Below the pieces are notes generated by a model. The model saw nothing but the letters and a program-made list of their open reading frames with translations. It was not told the DNA's origin and ran no database searches. The position numbers were made by a program, and so were the translations under genes. DNA of 25,473 nt from a virus. The DNA lies in IMG/VR virus record IMGVR_UViG_3300017763_000166, positions 1 to 25,473 of that record. The stretch is one strand, 5' to 3'. Of this stretch, positions 4,510 through 15,408 are shown one piece after another (positions within the stretch are counted from its first letter, which is position 1; each line of letters begins with the position of its first letter).

Positions 4510-4899
4510 ATGATAAGCAAAGCAAAACAAGAGCACATCATATCATCCATTACAGACGGACACAGCTTGGTAAAGGCTTGTGCAGATGCAAAGGTCAGTC
4601 GTGCTACGTTATATCGCTATATGAGCAAGGATGCTGATTTAGACAGCAATGTAAAGACTGCACAAAGACAGGCTGCTGAGAAAGCACTTGAGGAGCTAGA
4701 GGATATGTATGGTGATGCGTTGCATGGGCGAAAGAACTATGACCCTAATTTATTGAGAGACTATGGGCATCATGTGAGATGGAAGGTGCAGAAGGTATTG
4801 CCAGACAGGTTTGGTGAAGCTAAGAATAGAACAGGCGTTGAGATTAGTGATGGTTCATTGAAGATAGTTTGGGAGACTGGTACAGAGGATGCAAGTTAA
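4510..4899 (+). CDS. terS: Terminase small subunit
   Basis: This 129-residue protein has an N-terminal helix-turn-helix (SLVKACADAKVSRATLYRYM, about residues 18-38) typical of small terminases. A long oligomerisation helix follows (about residues 45-68, VKTAQRQAAEKALEELEDMY). The C-terminal part has VRWKVQKVLPDRFG and a strand ending LKIVWETG. In the family, a ring of this subunit recognises the packaging site in concatemeric DNA and delivers it to the large subunit. The start at 4510 has no good ribosome site, and CACACGCA-type repeats reach right up to it. The gene overlaps the large terminase gene by 11 bases. Family resemblance is to the Sf6/P22-like small terminases with N-terminal HTH. 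Confidence 0.88.
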   Translation: MISKAKQEHIISSITDGHSLVKACADAKVSRATLYRYMSKDADLDSNVKTAQRQAAEKALEELEDMYGDALHGRKNYDPNLLRDYGHHVRWKVQKVLPDRFGEAKNRTGVEISDGSLKIVWETGTEDAS

Positions 4900-6175
4900 G
4901 ATACCCTATAAGCCTAGAGACTTACAGGCTGAGATGCACAATAAGTTGAAAAGATGGAATGTGCTTGTGATGCACAGACGATTTGGTAAGACTGTATTTG
5001 CTGTCAATCATATGATTAAACATGTGCTTACTTGTGAGTTACCAAGACCAAGAGTTGCGTTAGTGGCTCCTACGTTTACACAGGCTAAGAGGATTAGTTG
5101 GGATTATGTTAAGTATTATGCTGGAGTTATACCAGGTGTTACGTTTAACGAGACTGAGTTAAGGGCAGACTTTCCTAATAATGGTAGGATAATGTTATTG
5201 TCAGGTGAGAATCCAGATGCGTTGAGAGGTATATACTTGGATTTGTGTGTCTTTGATGAGTATGGGATGCAGAATCCTAGGGTATGGGGGGAGGTTGTAA
5301 GACCAGCCCTATCCGATAGAGAGGGTAGTGCCATCTTTTTGGGTACACCAGCAGGTCATAATCATTTTTTTGATATATTGCAACAGGCACGAGAGCAGGA
5401 TGAAGAAGGTTCTGACCAATGGTACTGGAAGATTGCCAAGGCTAGTGAGACTAAGCTCGTGAAAGATGCAGAGTTAGAAGCTGCACAGTTGCAGATGACA
5501 CCAGAGCAGTATGAGCAGGAGTATGAGTGTTCATTTACGGCTGCGATTATTGGTGCGTACTATGGTAAGTTACTTGCTGACTTAGATGACAATGGAAAGA
5601 TTACGAGAGTGCCATACGATCCTGCACTGCCAGTACATACGGCTTGGGATTTAGGTATTAATGATTCGACTGCTATTTGGTTTGCACAGGTATATAGAGG
5701 GGGTGCTGTTAATGTTATTGACTATTATGAGAATAGTGGCGTTGGCTTGGACCATTACGCTGAAGTATTGCGAAAGAAAGATTATCACTGGGGAGATCAT
5801 CTTGCTCCACATGATATTGAGGTTCGAGAACTGGGTAGTGGGAAATCGAGATTAGAGACTGCATTTAGTTTGGGTATACGTTTTAGGGTTATACCGAAGA
5901 TGAAAGTTGCTGATGGTATTAATGCTGCGAGGATGATGATACCTAAATGTTACTTTGATAGGGATAAATGTGCTGAGGGTCTTGAGATGTTAAGGCAATA
6001 TAGGCAGGAGTGGGATGAAAGAAAGAAGATATTTAGAGATCAGCCACGCCATGACTTTACGAGTCATAGTGCTGATGCGTTTAGGTATTTAGCTATTGGG
6101 TTGGAGAATCGTACTGTGATGACTAGACCACCACAATCTGTGGCAGTGAATGAGTACAATCCTTTTACGATATGA
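4889..6175 (+). CDS. terL: Terminase large subunit (packaging ATPase and nuclease)
   Basis: This 428-residue protein carries both motor and nuclease domains. Walker A is H29-RRFGKT-35, the adenine and P-loop-proximal APTFTQAKR follows at 60-68, Walker B with the catalytic Glu is VFDE (121-124), and the coupling motif is GTP (152-154). The RNase H-like nuclease begins with the strand HTAWDLG, giving the metal-binding D254, and ends near SHSADAFRYL about residue 400. It pumps DNA into the procapsid and cuts it at the end of packaging. The length is on the short side for the family, which is common in podophages. The start overlaps terS, and its stop overlaps the next start as ATGA, so the three genes are translationally linked. 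Confidence 0.95.
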   Translation: MQVKIPYKPRDLQAEMHNKLKRWNVLVMHRRFGKTVFAVNHMIKHVLTCELPRPRVALVAPTFTQAKRISWDYVKYYAGVIPGVTFNETELRADFPNNGRIMLLSGENPDALRGIYLDLCVFDEYGMQNPRVWGEVVRPALSDREGSAIFLGTPAGHNHFFDILQQAREQDEEGSDQWYWKIAKASETKLVKDAELEAAQLQMTPEQYEQEYECSFTAAIIGAYYGKLLADLDDNGKITRVPYDPALPVHTAWDLGINDSTAIWFAQVYRGGAVNVIDYYENSGVGLDHYAEVLRKKDYHWGDHLAPHDIEVRELGSGKSRLETAFSLGIRFRVIPKMKVADGINAARMMIPKCYFDRDKCAEGLEMLRQYRQEWDERKKIFRDQPRHDFTSHSADAFRYLAIGLENRTVMTRPPQSVAVNEYNPFTI

Positions 6176-6579
6176 TGTATTCTCAGGATTACCATGATGC
6201 TATGGATATGGTTGAGTATAGTGAGCATCATAGAGACTGGGATAAAGATATGTTGCAGAAATATATTGAAAAACCATTAGGGATTAGACAGTATAAGATT
6301 ATTAGGAATGATTATCAGGAGCCATTGATGTTTGCCACATGGGGTTTTCCAAGCGAGAAGCAGGTAGATGAATACGTTGCCACTAAGTATTTTCCTGCTG
6401 ATGGGTATAAGGGTGGTGGCAGTGATGTTTGGCTAGTAGACTTTATTGCAAAAAAAGGTTATACAAGAATAGGTTTTCTTGTTTTAAAGAAAATGTTTAT
6501 GCGTATTGGCTATAAGAAAGCCTTTTGGTTTAGACCAGAGACCAACAAACTAGGTTGGCATATATTGAAAGGAAAGTGA
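6172..6579 (+). CDS. HlyC-type protein lysine acyltransferase
   Basis: This 135-residue protein aligns by eye over its whole length with RTX toxin-activating acyltransferases of the HlyC family. The pattern SEH-H20-RDW corresponds to the HRNW of HlyC around catalytic His23. GIRQY corresponds to RANQY. PLMFATWGFPS corresponds to PVAYCSWANLS. W87-LVD90-FIA corresponds to WFIDWIAP with catalytic Asp92. In the known family the enzyme moves a fatty acyl group from acyl-ACP to the side chain of internal lysines on a protein target. No RTX toxin is present here. The gene overlaps terL (ATGA) and is followed after one base by a lysine-rich virion-type protein, a candidate substrate. The GNAT-like fold is well supported; the acyl group and target are unknown. 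Confidence 0.82.
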   Translation: MMYSQDYHDAMDMVEYSEHHRDWDKDMLQKYIEKPLGIRQYKIIRNDYQEPLMFATWGFPSEKQVDEYVATKYFPADGYKGGGSDVWLVDFIAKKGYTRIGFLVLKKMFMRIGYKKAFWFRPETNKLGWHILKGK

Positions 6580-6580
6580 C

Positions 6581-6970
6581 ATGGGTGGTGCTCCAAAAAA
6601 AATAGCAAGGGCAACAAAAAAAACATTACAAAAAGCTGAAAAGGCTTTAGTCGAACCTTTAGAAAAACCAGTAAAGAAAGCTATAAATGTAGTTGAAAAG
6701 GTTGGTGCAGAAATAGTAGAGCCTTTGGAAAGACCAGTAAAGAAACTTGTAAGAGAAGTCAAGGAGACTGTCACTGGCACTGATAAAAATGATTATAGAA
6801 AGCCTGAACAACCAGCAGAATCACCAGAGATAACACCTGAAGTTGTTGAAGATGAGTCAACAATAACAACTAGGTATGCCACTAGAGGTAAAAGGTCAGG
6901 TCAAGGGGGTACGATCATGGAAGGCTATGGCGTAGTTACACGACCAAAAAGCAAAAAAGCAATAACATAG
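6581..6970 (+). CDS. Lysine-rich protein, T7 gp7.3-like by position and architecture
   Basis: This 129-residue protein begins MGGAPKKIARATKKTLQKAE. It has an N-terminal Lys-rich amphipathic half with a 22-residue tandem repeat (VEPLEKPVKK at 24-33 and VEPLERPVKK at 46-55). A Pro/Glu-rich linker follows, then a Gly-rich tail GKRSGQGGTIMEGYG and a basic C-terminus. From memory, T7 gp7.3, a small virion protein encoded just before the connector, also has an N-terminal MGKKVKKAVKK-type stretch, an acidic linker and a Gly/Ser-rich tail. The tail motif recurs in the next gene. The Lys-rich repeats next to a HlyC-type enzyme make it a plausible acylation target, which is inference. A GGAAAG ribosome site precedes the ATG. 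Confidence 0.7.
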   Translation: MGGAPKKIARATKKTLQKAEKALVEPLEKPVKKAINVVEKVGAEIVEPLERPVKKLVREVKETVTGTDKNDYRKPEQPAESPEITPEVVEDESTITTRYATRGKRSGQGGTIMEGYGVVTRPKSKKAIT

Positions 6971-6979
6971 GAGATATAA

Positions 6980-7201
6980 ATGTCATTCCTTAAACCAAAA
7001 GTTTATGTTCCACCACCACCACCAGTTCCAGAAGAACCTGCACAAGCTGACTATGAAAAAGCTGCTGCTATGGCTGGTGAAGCAGAAACACAGGAAAGAA
7101 AAAAACGTAGAGGGCGTGGCAGTACGATTGTTGCTGGTCAGTTAGGAGAAACATCCACAAGTATGGGTGGCACAGGTGGTACACCAACTTTGTTAGGATA
7201 A
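6980..7201 (+). CDS. Small Pro-rich protein with RRGRGSTI tail motif, likely minor virion or assembly protein
   Basis: This 73-residue protein begins MSFLKPKVYVPPPPPVPEEP. It has a polyproline stretch, a short Ala/Glu helix (ADYEKAAAMAGEAETQE), a basic KKRRGRGSTIVAG motif and a Gly/Thr-rich tail ending in LLG. Proteins with a GRxSTIxxG tail between large terminase and connector are common in podophages, from my memory of these genomes. Their role is not settled, with head-tail assembly or an internal protein the usual suggestions. The tail motif matches that of the upstream protein (GQGGTIMEG). GGAG lies seven bases before the ATG. Confidence 0.72.
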   Translation: MSFLKPKVYVPPPPPVPEEPAQADYEKAAAMAGEAETQERKKRRGRGSTIVAGQLGETSTSMGGTGGTPTLLG

Positions 7202-7205
7202 ACCC

Positions 7206-8798
7206 ATGATGAATGTCAAAGATATAGTTGCTCGTTATCAACACGTTGAAGGTCAGAGAGATAACTGGAATAATCATTACCAGGAGTTAGCTGACTATAT
7301 GTTGCCAAGAAAGGCAGACATAGTTAAGAAAAGAAGTCGTGGTGAAAAGAGAATGGAGCTTATCTTTGATGGTACAGCTTTACAAGCAGTAGATTTATTA
7401 TCATCTAGTTTACATGGTATGCTGACATCTGGTGCAACGCCATGGTTTCATTTGACTATGAAAGATGAAGAATTGGGCAGGGATGAAGAAGTCCAAAGAT
7501 GGTTAGAAGATAGTTCGCAAAGAATGATGCGTGCCTTTACTATGTCTAACTTTGAAACAGAAGTGCATGAGATGTATGTTGACCTAGTTGTATTTGGTAC
7601 TGGGTGTATGTTTGTTGAGATGGATGACAAGACATTACGTTTTAGTACAAGGCATATATCAGAGTTTTATGTAACAGAAGATCAATATGGTATCGTTGAT
7701 ACTGTATTTAGAAAGTATGAGTTACCTGCAAGACAAGCTGTGCAAAGATTTGGCATTGATAATGTAGGTGCATTTATTGCAAGAACATTTGAGAAGAAGC
7801 CTGATGAGAATGTAGAGATACTTCATGTTGTGATGCCTAGAAAAGAAAGAGATCCAACGAAACGAGATAATAAGAATATGCCATTTGCATCTATGTATAT
7901 TTGCATGGAAACAAAAATGATATTGGCAGAGAGTGGTTTTCAGGAACTACCTTACGTTGTACCACGCTTCTTAAAGGCAACAGGAGAAGTGATGGGTAGA
8001 TCTCCAGCTATGGTTGCATTGCCAGATGTGAAGATGATTAACTTGATGTCTAAAACAATCATACAAGCAGCACAAAAAATGATAGATCCTCCACTATTAG
8101 TGCCTGATGATGGGTTCTTGCTCCCCATTCGAACCCAGCCTGGAGGTCTAAACTTTTACAGATCAGGCTCAAGAGATACAATAACACCACTACAAACTGG
8201 TGCTAATATACCTATTGGATTGAACATGGAAGAACAACGAAGGATGGCAATTCGTTCTGCTTTCTTCGTTGACCAATTACTAAGTGGTAGTACGCCTAAT
8301 ATGACAGCGACAGAAGTTATACAAAGACAAGAAGAAAGAATGAGAGTTATAGGTCCTGTGCTTGGTAGATTGATGAACGAAATGCTAAGACCTTTAATTG
8401 ATAGGGCGTTTGCTTTGATGTTGCGTGCAGATATGCTTGCCGTACCACCAGAGGTTTTACAAGGATTGGATATTGATATTGAGTATGTATCACCACTTGC
8501 GAGGGCACAAAAGTCTAGCTCTGTTAATGGTGTGATGAGAGCCTTAGAAATACTAATGCCATTGTCACAACAGCTACCAGTTGGAGATCACATTGACCCT
8601 GATGGACTGGTTAACTATCTAACTGATGCACTGGGTGTTCCAAAGAAAGTCTTGAAGCCACAGTCAGCCATTGATGAAGAAAGAGAACAGCGTGCAATGA
8701 TGCAGCAAGAGCAGATGGAAAGACAAATGGAGCAAGAGGATGTAGCTACAGTTGGTCAGGCAGCACAAGCAGTAAGAATGGTTGGTGCAAATGAATGA
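7206..8798 (+). CDS. Head-tail connector (portal) protein, T7 gp8-like
   Basis: At 530 residues, close to the 536 of T7 gp8, it has the family N-terminus: HVEGQRDNWNNHYQELADYM, then LPRK, then ELIFDGTALQAVDLLSSSLH and TPWFHL. The core contains the long crown and stem helices and a LPVGDHID segment. The C-terminal tail is Gln/Glu/Met-rich (REQRAMMQQEQMERQMEQED) as in other podophage connectors. Twelve copies form the DNA-entry ring of the capsid, bind the terminase during packaging and later the tail. The start is a double ATG with AGGA eight bases before. The last 8 bases overlap the following small gene. Confidence 0.93.
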   Translation: MMNVKDIVARYQHVEGQRDNWNNHYQELADYMLPRKADIVKKRSRGEKRMELIFDGTALQAVDLLSSSLHGMLTSGATPWFHLTMKDEELGRDEEVQRWLEDSSQRMMRAFTMSNFETEVHEMYVDLVVFGTGCMFVEMDDKTLRFSTRHISEFYVTEDQYGIVDTVFRKYELPARQAVQRFGIDNVGAFIARTFEKKPDENVEILHVVMPRKERDPTKRDNKNMPFASMYICMETKMILAESGFQELPYVVPRFLKATGEVMGRSPAMVALPDVKMINLMSKTIIQAAQKMIDPPLLVPDDGFLLPIRTQPGGLNFYRSGSRDTITPLQTGANIPIGLNMEEQRRMAIRSAFFVDQLLSGSTPNMTATEVIQRQEERMRVIGPVLGRLMNEMLRPLIDRAFALMLRADMLAVPPEVLQGLDIDIEYVSPLARAQKSSSVNGVMRALEILMPLSQQLPVGDHIDPDGLVNYLTDALGVPKKVLKPQSAIDEEREQRAMMQQEQMERQMEQEDVATVGQAAQAVRMVGANE

Positions 8799-12105: not shown

Positions 12106-14514
12106 ATGGCTAGAGTATCGTCTATTATCACCAATTTCAGAGCAGGTGAGATATCTCCACGATTAGAAGGTAGGATTGATTTACAGAAATATAATGAAGC
12201 TGTAAAAGATTTAAATAATATGATTGTATTTCCACAGGGAGGTACAACACGCAGACCTGGAACATTTTACGCAGGAACCACAAAAGATGGTGGTCAGGTA
12301 AGATTAATTAACTTTGAGTTTAGCGATACACAAGCCTATGTATTAGAGTTTGGTAATAACTACATACGAGTATTTAAAGATGGTGGCTTAGTTACAGAAG
12401 CTACTACAGCAATATCTGCAATAACAAAAGCAAACCCAGCAGTGGTGACATCTAATTCACATGGTTTGAATAATGGTGACAGAGTGTTTATTACTGGTGT
12501 TGTTGGTATGACAGAGGTAAACAACAGGGAGTTTACAGTTGCAGGAAAAACAACTAATACATTTCAGTTAAGTGGTGTTAATAGCACAGGGTTTACAACT
12601 TACGGAAGTGCAGGAACAGTTGGTAAAATAGTAGAGATAACAAGCACTTACACAACAAGCCAGTTATCCAGCATTAACTTTGCACAATCAGCAGATGTTT
12701 TGTTTCTTGCACATAATAGTCATCAACCTGCAAAGTTAACAAGAACAAGTCATACATCATGGACATTGACAGATATTGATTTTACTGATGGTCCTTACCT
12801 TGATGAAAACATAACGACAACTACTTTGTATGCTTCGGCAGACAATGGTTCTGTAACGATTACAGCAAGTGCTGATTTATTTGCAAGCACAGATGTTGGT
12901 AGATTAATAAGGTTTCGTGAAGTATTAGAGATAACCTATGATGAATGGGCAGCTAGTACAAGTTATGCCAATGATGTTTTTGTTAGGTTTAATGGTCATG
13001 TCTACAAACATACAACTGGGTCTACGCAGACATCAGGTAACACGCCACCAGTACACACATCAGGTACAGAAACATATGGCAGTTTGAATTGGGAATACAG
13101 GCATGATGATACAGGGTATGTAAAGGTTACTGCATTTACTAATGCAACAACAGTTACAGCATCAGTTCAAACAGATGATGGTGGTATATCGGTTTTACCA
13201 GCACAAGTTGTTGGTTCAAGTAATGCGACTACAAAATGGTCACTAGGTAGTTTTAGTGCGACTACTGGGTTCCCAAGAGCAATAGGTTTCTATGAAGAAC
13301 GATTATACTTTGCTGGAACTACAAGTCAGCCACAGACTATCTTTGGTAGTGTTTCTGCTGATTTTGAAAACCACACACCTGGAACAGAAGATGATGCAGC
13401 CATAAATGTAACGATAGCATCAGACCAAGTAAACGTGATAAAGCACTTATTACCAGCTAGATTCTTGCAATTATTAACTACAAGTGCTGAGTTTACACTG
13501 TCAGGTGGTGCAGGATCAGAGCCAGTTACACCTACAAATGTAAATGTTCTTAGAGAAACTACGTTTGGCACAGGTACAGTAAAGCCATTGAGAGCAGGTA
13601 ACAGTACAATACTAATACAAAAGGGTGCAGAAAAAGTAAAAGAAATAACTTTTGATTTAGATACAGATGGATTGTTAGGTGTTGATTTAACTGTATTGGC
13701 AGATCATTTGGCTAGAGGTGGCTTAACTGACATGGTTTGGCAACAAGAGCCTGAGTTATTATTATGGTTTGTTCACAGTGATGGCAGACTTATTGGATTA
13801 ACTTATGACAGAGCTAACGCTACAGTGGGTTGGCATGAGCACAGTTTAGGTGGCAGTGGCATAGTAGAAAGTATTACAGCTATACCTAGTGGTGCAGAAG
13901 ATCAGGTTTATCTAAGTGTAAAAAGAACAATTAACAGTGCGACTGTAAGACATATAGTTTTTCTCAAGTCATTATATTTCAATGATGATGTAGAAGATGC
14001 TTTCTTTGTAGATAGTGGATTAACATACAGTGGAAGTGCCACAACGTCTATTACAGGCTTAAATCATCTTGAGGGTGTGACAGTGACCATTTTAGCTGAT
14101 GGGTCTGCACACGCAGATAAAACAGTCAGTGGTGGTGCAGTCACATTAGATAGAAGTGCGTCAAAGGTTCACATTGGTTATGGGTATACATCATCACTAG
14201 AAACCTTGCGTATGGAAGCAGGTGCAGAAGATGGTATTTCACAAGGCAAGATAAAGAGAATACATGGTGTTACGGCTAGGTTCTTTCAGACAGTTGGTGC
14301 AGAGTTAGGTCCTGATACAAGTAATCTTGACAGATTGCCATTTAGAGATAGTAGTATGAATATGGATGAAGCTGTACCATTGTTTACTGGGGATAAAGAA
14401 ATATCTTTCCCATCAGGGTATGATAATGATGCAAAGATTGTTATAAGGCAGACACAGCCATTGCCTATGACAATATTAGCTATTATGAGAAGGTCTAATA
14501 CATTTGATGCTTAG
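12106..14514 (+). CDS. Tail tubular protein B (nozzle), T7 gp12-like, with extra FCCH- and carbohydrate-binding-like domains
   Basis: At 802 residues (T7 gp12 has 794), it begins with the family signature ITNFRAGEISPRLEGRIDLQ, then DLNNMIVFPQGGTTRRPGT. Residues about 102-170 look like an FCCH domain (AVVTSNSHGLNNGDRVFITG, then NREFTVAGK and TFQLSG). Residues about 278-330 resemble a small carbohydrate-binding module (EWAASTSYANDVFVRFNGHV, then TPPVHTSGT and LNWEY). The C-terminal beta-propeller-like part carries AIGFYEERLYFAGT and SQPQTIFGS, typical of the nozzle. Six copies close the tail and hold the DNA. The extra modules suggest surface-exposed loops that may touch the host envelope. Its stop overlaps the acetyltransferase start. 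Confidence 0.9.
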   Translation: MARVSSIITNFRAGEISPRLEGRIDLQKYNEAVKDLNNMIVFPQGGTTRRPGTFYAGTTKDGGQVRLINFEFSDTQAYVLEFGNNYIRVFKDGGLVTEATTAISAITKANPAVVTSNSHGLNNGDRVFITGVVGMTEVNNREFTVAGKTTNTFQLSGVNSTGFTTYGSAGTVGKIVEITSTYTTSQLSSINFAQSADVLFLAHNSHQPAKLTRTSHTSWTLTDIDFTDGPYLDENITTTTLYASADNGSVTITASADLFASTDVGRLIRFREVLEITYDEWAASTSYANDVFVRFNGHVYKHTTGSTQTSGNTPPVHTSGTETYGSLNWEYRHDDTGYVKVTAFTNATTVTASVQTDDGGISVLPAQVVGSSNATTKWSLGSFSATTGFPRAIGFYEERLYFAGTTSQPQTIFGSVSADFENHTPGTEDDAAINVTIASDQVNVIKHLLPARFLQLLTTSAEFTLSGGAGSEPVTPTNVNVLRETTFGTGTVKPLRAGNSTILIQKGAEKVKEITFDLDTDGLLGVDLTVLADHLARGGLTDMVWQQEPELLLWFVHSDGRLIGLTYDRANATVGWHEHSLGGSGIVESITAIPSGAEDQVYLSVKRTINSATVRHIVFLKSLYFNDDVEDAFFVDSGLTYSGSATTSITGLNHLEGVTVTILADGSAHADKTVSGGAVTLDRSASKVHIGYGYTSSLETLRMEAGAEDGISQGKIKRIHGVTARFFQTVGAELGPDTSNLDRLPFRDSSMNMDEAVPLFTGDKEISFPSGYDNDAKIVIRQTQPLPMTILAIMRRSNTFDA

Positions 14515-14929
14515 TATTAAAAGATTTGAAAAAGAAGATTTGGAAATGATAGAAACTAATTTTCATTTTCCAGAAAGCTCAAAAGCAGCTATGATGAAAG
14601 AAAGTTGCATAAGTGCATACACAGCATTGCTAGAAAGTAAGGTATTTATGATTGGTGGTGTATATGGATTGTGGAAAGATGTAGGCGAAGCATGGTTTAT
14701 TATGTCAAGTATTGCCTATAACAAACCTTTTGCAGCAGCTAAATACTCCAGTATATTGTTAGATCATGTTCAAGATAACGCTAAGTTAAAACGCATACAA
14801 GCAAGTGTTCATACTAAAGATAAGCAAGCTATAAGATATGTAGAGTGGCTAGGGTTTGAAAATGAAGGTTTAATGAAGAAGTATGGTCCTGATGGTTCGG
14901 ACTATTATCGTTTTGCAAGGGTAGTATAA
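14507..14929 (+). CDS. GNAT-fold protein in the T7 gene 13 position
   Basis: This 140-residue protein is recognisable as a GNAT acyltransferase-like fold. It has MLSIKRFEKEDLEMIETNF, a strand with VFMIGGVYGLW, the second strand AWFIMSSIAY, and the C-terminal block LKRIQASVHTKDKQAIRYVE followed by WLGFENEGLMKKYG. The usual acetyl-CoA binding QxxGxG/A loop is not evident (KPFAAAKYSS stands there), so catalysis is uncertain. Between tail tube B and the gp14-like gene, T7 has gp13, an internal-virion assembly protein that belongs to a GNAT-like family. The ATG at 14507 lies inside the tail B gene; a TTG one codon upstream is not needed. Its stop overlaps the next start (TAATG). Confidence 0.8.
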   Translation: MLSIKRFEKEDLEMIETNFHFPESSKAAMMKESCISAYTALLESKVFMIGGVYGLWKDVGEAWFIMSSIAYNKPFAAAKYSSILLDHVQDNAKLKRIQASVHTKDKQAIRYVEWLGFENEGLMKKYGPDGSDYYRFARVV

Positions 14930-15408
14930 TGGCAATATTAAAAGCAGTTCTCGGTTATAAAGGAAACATGGCTTCTGCTAAAGCTGCTAGGCAGATGGGC
15001 GAGTACAATGCTAAAGTAGCTGAAAATGAACAGGTATTAATACAGCGTGCAACTAGGCAAAAAGAAAAAAATTTAAGAAAACAGTCAGGCAGATTAGTTG
15101 GGATGCAAAGAGTTGCAGTAGCCAAGTCAGGTGTGCAAATGTCAGGCAGTGCTTTACAATCTTTGGCAGACACATTTTTTAACACAGAGATGGATGCTAT
15201 AAATATACGTTATGCTGGGTCTATAGAAGAAGCATCTAAGATTAATGAAGCTGCTATGGCGAGAGCAAGTGCTAGTGCTAGGTCACAACAATACAAAACT
15301 GCTGCATATATGACTTTACTAGAAGCAGGAGAAGATGCAGCAAAAATGTCTGCTGGTGGTGGTGGCTCTAGTGGAACAGGACTTGGTAAAAAAAGTTATA
15401 TAACGTAA
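14929..15408 (+). CDS. Internal virion protein, T7 gp14-like
   Basis: This 159-residue, almost entirely helical protein is rich in Ala, Ser, Arg and Gln. It contains a YNAKVAENEQVLIQRATRQK stretch, KQSGRLVGMQRVAVAKSGVQ and MSGSALQSLADTFFNTEMDA, then a long Ala helix and a Gly-rich C-terminus. The layout, Ala-rich N-terminus, 'GxQRVAxAxSGVxMSGSAL' centre and D-x-x-N-IRY helix, is that of the podophage core protein family including T7 gp14. In T7 this protein inserts in the outer membrane during DNA ejection. Neighbours on both sides keep the T7 gene order 13-14-15-16. Confidence 0.87.
   Translation: MAILKAVLGYKGNMASAKAARQMGEYNAKVAENEQVLIQRATRQKEKNLRKQSGRLVGMQRVAVAKSGVQMSGSALQSLADTFFNTEMDAINIRYAGSIEEASKINEAAMARASASARSQQYKTAAYMTLLEAGEDAAKMSAGGGGSSGTGLGKKSYIT

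What the first reader, a model, noticed from the sequence alone, without database searches (positions are those of the whole stretch)
6172..6579. A HlyC-type lysine acyltransferase inside a phage morphogenesis block
Residues H20 (in HHRDW) and D90 (in WLVDF) fall at the places of HlyC His23 and Asp92, and the intervening QY, W-x-x-x-S and W-(L/F)-x-D blocks line up in order. HlyC enzymes activate RTX toxins by fatty-acylating lysines. Here there is no toxin: the gene is locked by start/stop overlaps between large terminase and virion genes, so its substrate is probably a phage structural or ejected protein. That would be a phage-encoded protein lipidation step in virion assembly or DNA ejection. 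Homologues may already be annotated in marine phages, but I know of no described function.
Basis: partly seen in the sequence, partly recalled or inferred. Interest (0 to 1): 0.8.

Follow-up and report, generated by a model that had tools for sequence, protein, structure and literature searches.

The report
Phage HlyC-type acyltransferase in virion cassette
A marine virus of bacteria carries, as a fixed part of its particle-building genes, a relative of the enzymes that attach fatty acids to bacterial toxins; it has no toxin to act on, so it probably attaches fatty acids to one of the virus's own particle proteins, most likely the one encoded by the very next gene.

Summary
The ORF at 6172-6579 is a real HlyC-family gene: Pfam HlyC E=1.6e-7, above the curated cut-off, and the AlphaFold model's best PDB match is ApxC, well ahead of ordinary GNATs. 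The ApxC/HlyC Ser and His (S17, H20) are present in 114 of 114 distinct complete homologues and the Asp (D90) in 122 of 122. The gene sits between terL and the portal cassette in 74 of 74 testable terL relatives (85-100% identity), so it is core, not cargo. No RTX repeats were found in the window or six ~33-35 kb relatives. It is absent from cultured HTVC010P-type relatives (~50% terL identity) examined.

New here: the next gene almost always encodes a basic, apparently unfolded protein starting Met-Gly-[Gly/Ser/Ala] (112 of 114 distinct proteins; the other two Met-Ala), although the rest of its N-terminus is swapped among unrelated modules. Two other pelagiphage lineages show the same pair beside tail genes. 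No lysine is common to all these products, so the N-terminal amine is a better candidate target than a lysine. Main counter-evidence: relatives without HlyC also have MG-starting proteins in this slot. Substrate and chemistry are inferred. HlyC-like genes were already annotated in other pelagiphages.

The parts
6172..6579 (+). HlyC-family acyltransferase gene, 135 aa; Ser17, His20, Asp90 at the ApxC/HlyC active-site positions; conserved C-terminal WxR (W119, R121)
   Evidence: Pfam HlyC E=1.6e-7; ApxC best structural match; residues invariant in 114-122 distinct homologues
6172..6175 (+). ATGA overlap of the acyltransferase start with the terL stop
   Evidence: sequence
6581..6970 (+). Proposed substrate: 129-aa Lys-rich protein MGGAPKKIARATKK..., with VEPLEKPVKK repeats, predicted unfolded or helical; starts one base after the acyltransferase stop
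   Evidence: MG[GSA] start in 112/114 distinct orthologous products; AlphaFold pLDDT 54, pTM 0.17
6980..7201 (+). 73-aa small protein MSFLKPKVYVPPPPP..., phrog_831 type, between the proposed substrate and the portal gene
   Evidence: phrog_831 E=3.2e-9
4889..6175 (+). Terminase large subunit, upstream neighbour
   Evidence: Terminase_6N and PHROG terminase hits
4510..4899 (+). Terminase small subunit
   Evidence: Sf6_terminase E=1.2e-8
7206..8798 (+). Portal / head-tail connector
   Evidence: Head-tail_con E=7e-153

Best explanation
The gene encodes a HlyC-family (GNAT-superfamily) acyltransferase that is a core component of the virion-building operon of this clade of marine podoviruses. Most likely it takes a fatty acyl group from host acyl-ACP and puts it on the protein made by the next gene, a small basic, apparently unfolded protein beginning Met-Gly-[Gly/Ser/Ala], presumably a minor virion or DNA-ejection protein, so that the lipid plus the polybasic stretch lets it sit in or cross the host membrane. 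SHOWN: family membership, fold, catalytic residues, purifying selection, fixed position, absence of RTX repeats, the conserved next gene with its MG[GSA] start. INFERRED: that it is active, that acyl-ACP is the donor, that the next gene product is the substrate (by analogy with hlyC-hlyA gene order and by adjacency), which amine is used, that the substrate is in the virion, and the membrane role.
For: Profile, fold and active-site evidence. dN/dS 0.1-0.3 against the more diverged relatives. Present in 74 of 74 testable terL relatives at 85-100% identity. Every one of 118 distinct loci has at least one MG[GSA] (rarely MA) gene between the acyltransferase and the portal. In the surveyed regions of HlyC-bearing phages, MG[GAS] starts occur in 7 of 188 CDS, and all seven are the gene right after HlyC or its orthologue in HTVC103P/104P; 0 of the other 181. 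Two other lineages repeat the pair: HlyC-like then MGG tail protein (HTVC112P/026P/111P and 24 IMG/VR loci) and HlyC-like then MG[AS] polybasic protein (HTVC115P and 8 loci). Tail-tip homologues from three sampled phages whose slot holds DUF6950 instead do not start with MG. Precedent: CdiC, an RTX-type acyltransferase that lipidates a non-RTX protein to help it bind the outer membrane of target bacteria (PMC8510554).
Against: Cultured HTVC010P-type relatives without any HlyC match (three whole records searched) also have MG-starting proteins in the terL-portal slot, so the MG start does not depend on the enzyme. Two downstream products start MA rather than MG. In the tail lineages the active-site His is lost, so those may not be active acyltransferases and may not be good analogues. 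Adjacency was noticed after the fact. There is no experimental evidence of acylation.
Confidence: 0.45

Rival explanations
1. Canonical lysine chemistry: the enzyme fatty-acylates a lysine epsilon-amine, either in the E[KR]PxKK repeats of the downstream protein or on another virion or ejection protein (portal, gp14/15/16-like proteins).
For: Every characterised HlyC/CdiC relative known to me modifies lysine (PMC8510554, for HlyA, CyaA and CdiA). 101 of 118 loci have an E[KR]PxKK protein in the slot, and K54/K55 are invariant in the ten aligned members of that module.
Against: 17 of 118 loci lack the E[KR]PxKK motif in the slot; the L261-263 type has no lysine in its first 40 residues or its last 45. 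Other virion proteins were not examined for conserved lysines.
Confidence: 0.25
2. The target is a host protein (host takeover), and the gene merely rides in the virion operon.
For: No substrate has been demonstrated; phages do encode acetyltransferases that act on host proteins (general knowledge).
Against: The position next to the same kind of gene is conserved across the clade and the pairing recurs in two other lineages beside tail genes, as expected for a virion-linked rather than an early host-directed function. HTVC103P/104P, however, carry their copy near replication genes.
Confidence: 0.12
3. It is not a fatty-acyl transferase: either it transfers a short acyl group as ordinary GNATs do, or it has become a non-catalytic assembly chaperone or structural protein.
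For: HlyC is a GNAT-fold family; the tail-lineage homologues have lost the His, so non-catalytic members may exist. The window protein (135 aa) is shorter than ApxC (about 170 residues resolved).
Against: In the window's clade Ser, His and Asp are kept in every complete sequence despite identities down to about 40%, which argues for retained HlyC-type chemistry; the fold match prefers ApxC to acetyltransferases by three orders of magnitude in E-value.
Confidence: 0.15

Closest known systems
RTX toxin-activating acyltransferases (HlyC, ApxC, CyaC; Pfam PF02794; PDB 4whn)
   Same: Profile match over the cut-off, same predicted fold, Ser/His/Asp positions kept, gene directly upstream of the presumed substrate as in hlyC-hlyA
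   Different: No RTX repeats found in the genome; within terminase-portal genes of a phage; 135 aa; presumed substrate is a small unfolded MG[GSA] protein
CdiC of class IV CDI systems (PMC8510554)
   Same: RTX-type acyltransferase co-opted to lipidate a non-RTX protein that must engage another cell's envelope
   Different: CdiC modifies a lysine of a large CdiA effector; here a phage operon and an unproven, possibly N-terminal, target
HlyC-like genes of pelagiphages HTVC026P, 111P, 112P, 115P, 103P, 104P (annotated toxin-activating lysine-acyltransferase or RTX toxin acyltransferase)
   Same: Homologous (Pfam HlyC 46-62 bits; hhalign 97.8%); in 026P, 111P, 112P and 115P also directly upstream of an MG[GA] protein
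   Different: Different phage types and gene slots (tail tip, near replication genes); active-site His not kept in 026P, 111P, 112P, 115P
Eukaryotic N-myristoyltransferase (analogy only)
   Same: GNAT superfamily; substrates begin Met-Gly, often followed by a polybasic stretch (general knowledge)
   Different: No sequence relationship tested; prokaryotic viruses are not known to me to have such a system

Membership tests
HlyC / toxin-activating acyltransferase family (PF02794) | Profile match above the curated cut-off | tested here: met
   31.7 bits vs 25, E=1.6e-7; divergent relatives tested 39-44 bits, one (L258) 22 bits, below the cut-off
HlyC / toxin-activating acyltransferase family (PF02794) | ApxC-type GNAT fold | tested here: met
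   Foldseek best PDB match 4whn, E=4.3e-6, TM 0.65
HlyC / toxin-activating acyltransferase family (PF02794) | Catalytic His/Asp dyad plus the Ser three residues before the His | tested here: met
   S17 and H20 in 114/114 complete distinct homologues, D90 in 122/122; aligned to ApxC
HlyC / toxin-activating acyltransferase family (PF02794) | Neighbouring or cognate RTX protoxin | tested here: not met
   No RTX repeat match at E<=1 in the window, six relatives of 33-35 kb and three other pelagiphages; this defines the toxin operon, not the enzyme fold, and CdiC also lacks an RTX partner
HlyC / toxin-activating acyltransferase family (PF02794) | Acyl-ACP-dependent fatty acylation of a lysine | not testable with these tools
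   needs biochemistry
N-terminal glycine acyltransferase (NMT-like) function | Substrates with invariant Gly2 | tested here: inconclusive
   Gly2 in 112/114 distinct downstream proteins, Ala2 in 2; but HlyC-less relatives also have MG-starting slot proteins

The most novel reading that the evidence does not exclude
These phages encode a HlyC-derived enzyme that acylates the N-terminal glycine (alpha-amine) of a virion protein, the first N-myristoyltransferase-like system of a bacterial virus, yielding a lipid-plus-polybasic membrane anchor carried in the particle for DNA delivery.
Probability: 0.2. Interest if true: 0.9.

Novelty: new variant of a known kind. Interest (0 to 1): 0.6.

Why it matters
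Fatty acylation of a bacteriophage virion protein by a phage enzyme is, as far as I could find, undescribed. If right, some abundant marine podoviruses (cultured relatives infect SAR11) carry lipid-tagged proteins into their particles, which would bear on how short-tailed phages get proteins and DNA across the envelope, and would extend the RTX-acyltransferase family beyond toxins and CdiA. The pairing with MG[GSA] proteins gives a single, cheap test of both substrate and site.

Tried and rejected
tblastn of the protein against 50,697 phage records: no hit at 1e-2, only the HTVC115P homologue at 0.03 plus chance-level hits. phmmer of the single sequence against the PDB: nothing; the profile found ApxC. 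GTDB genome scan: no relative, so no evidence of a prophage or host copy. NCBIfam: no match. Hypothesis that a conserved lysine of the neighbour is the universal target: rejected as universal, since 17/118 loci lack the motif and one type has almost no lysines. Hypothesis that the MG start is produced by the presence of HlyC: not supported in the sister group, which has MG starts without HlyC. The fold of the neighbour is uninformative. Apparent non-MG starts in L251/L255 and L006 were my script choosing an internal start.

Full report
WHAT IS THERE. The ORF at 6172-6579 is exactly as described. It matches Pfam HlyC at E=1.6e-7, above the curated cut-off, and its best PHROG is an unnamed family, phrog_20210, which the annotated pelagiphage homologues also match. 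A profile of 32 relatives finds ApxC in the PDB at E=0.009 with the Ser-x-x-His and Trp-x-x-Asp blocks aligned. The AlphaFold model (pLDDT 81, pTM 0.75) is closest to ApxC (E=4.3e-6, TM 0.65), then to general GNAT acetyltransferases (E>=6e-3). In the viral structure library its second match is named a hemolysin acyltransferase from an uncultured Caudovirales phage. So the family assignment is sound.

CONSERVATION. IMG/VR scans returned large sets of relatives (197 confirmed in the last). In 122 distinct sequences the Asp (D90), Trp119 and Arg121 are invariant; Ser17 and His20 are present in all 114 of the window's clade long enough to show them, although identities fall to about 40%. dN/dS against the more diverged relatives is 0.1-0.3. 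Of 74 loci found through the terminase (85-100% identity) with enough downstream sequence, all 74 have the gene in the same slot. Cultured HTVC010P-type pelagiphages, about 50% identical in terminase, have other small genes there, and three searched whole have no HlyC match. The gene is therefore a core gene of one uncultured clade.

SURROUNDINGS. Its start overlaps the terL stop (ATGA); the next gene starts one base after its stop. The next gene encodes a small basic protein which AlphaFold does not fold with confidence (pLDDT 54; helices only). Its N-terminal part is exchanged between unrelated modules: Lys-rich VEPLEKPVKK repeats in one to several copies, MGGGPSGGG types, MGSGGSGTSGG types and others. 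What stays is the start: of 114 distinct products 110 were called as MG[GSA] directly and two more are MG when the evident upstream ATG is used; the remaining two are MA. All 118 distinct loci that reach the portal have at least one such gene in the slot; 101 also carry an E[KR]PxKK motif, 17 do not. One type has no lysine in its first 40 residues or its last 45.

THE SAME PAIR ELSEWHERE. Six cultured pelagiphages carry HlyC-like genes already annotated as such, confirmed by Pfam at 46-62 bits; the two groups are homologous by profile comparison (hhalign probability 97.8%). In HTVC112P/026P/111P the gene lies directly before a tail-tip protein starting MGG; in HTVC115P directly before a polybasic protein starting MGA; 24 and 8 further IMG/VR loci show the same. 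In HTVC103P/104P the HlyC-like gene has moved near replication genes, but the orthologue of the HTVC115P neighbour still starts MGS. In the surveyed parts of these genomes no other gene starts MG[GAS] (0 of 181). Three sampled tail-tip homologues from phages with a DUF6950 protein in the same slot do not start MG. The tail-lineage enzymes have lost the His, so their activity is doubtful, although H-to-A mutants of CdiC and ApxC keep some activity (PMC8510554).

HOW IT MOST LIKELY WORKS. By the established chemistry of the family (acyl-ACP donor, His/Asp dyad; PMC8510554) and the gene order of RTX operons, the simplest reading is that it acylates the product of the next gene. The only amine common to all those products is the one at the N-terminus after Met removal (Gly, rarely Ala), so N-terminal acylation is a real possibility; lysine acylation remains the conservative one. 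A lipid next to a polybasic stretch would be a membrane anchor, useful at DNA ejection. All of this paragraph is inference.

WHAT SPEAKS AGAINST IT. HTVC010P-type phages without HlyC also have MG-starting proteins in this slot, so the MG start has some reason independent of the enzyme. The adjacency pattern was noticed after the fact, and the lineages may not be fully independent. No biochemical data exist.

KNOWN OR NEW. HlyC-like genes in pelagiphages are already annotated, without function. I found no paper on phage virion acylation in the library searched, which is open-access only. The invariant active site in a phage core gene, the fixed terL-portal location, and the recurrent pairing with MG[GSA] proteins are, as far as I can tell, not described.

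Noticed in passing
14504-14929 and 14929-15408: A second GNAT-like protein (phrog_308 internal virion protein, weak Acetyltransf hits) sits directly before a T7 gp14-like internal virion protein gene, a parallel enzyme-then-virion-protein pair in the same window.
   Followed up: partly
L269:4839-5231 (Rhodoferax phage P26218_40): By eye a GNAT-like ORF occupies the same terL-portal slot in this more distant podovirus; Pfam gave no match, PHROGs only an unnamed family.
   Followed up: partly
6581-6970 and orthologues in L001-L342: The downstream gene shows rapid N-terminal module swapping and expansion or contraction of VEPLEKPVKK repeats, and sometimes two such genes in tandem.
   Followed up: partly
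6980-7201 versus L035, L036, L037, L265: The phrog_831-type protein starts MSFLKPK in the HlyC-bearing clade but mostly MGSIF-type in HTVC010P-type phages without HlyC.
   Followed up: no
L112, L114, L116 tail-tip region versus L208, L209, L210: The HlyC-like gene occupies the slot that in other phages with a homologous tail-tip protein holds a DUF6950 protein.
   Followed up: partly
whole window: The record is 25.5 kb while related records run about 33-35 kb, so it is probably incomplete.
   Followed up: no
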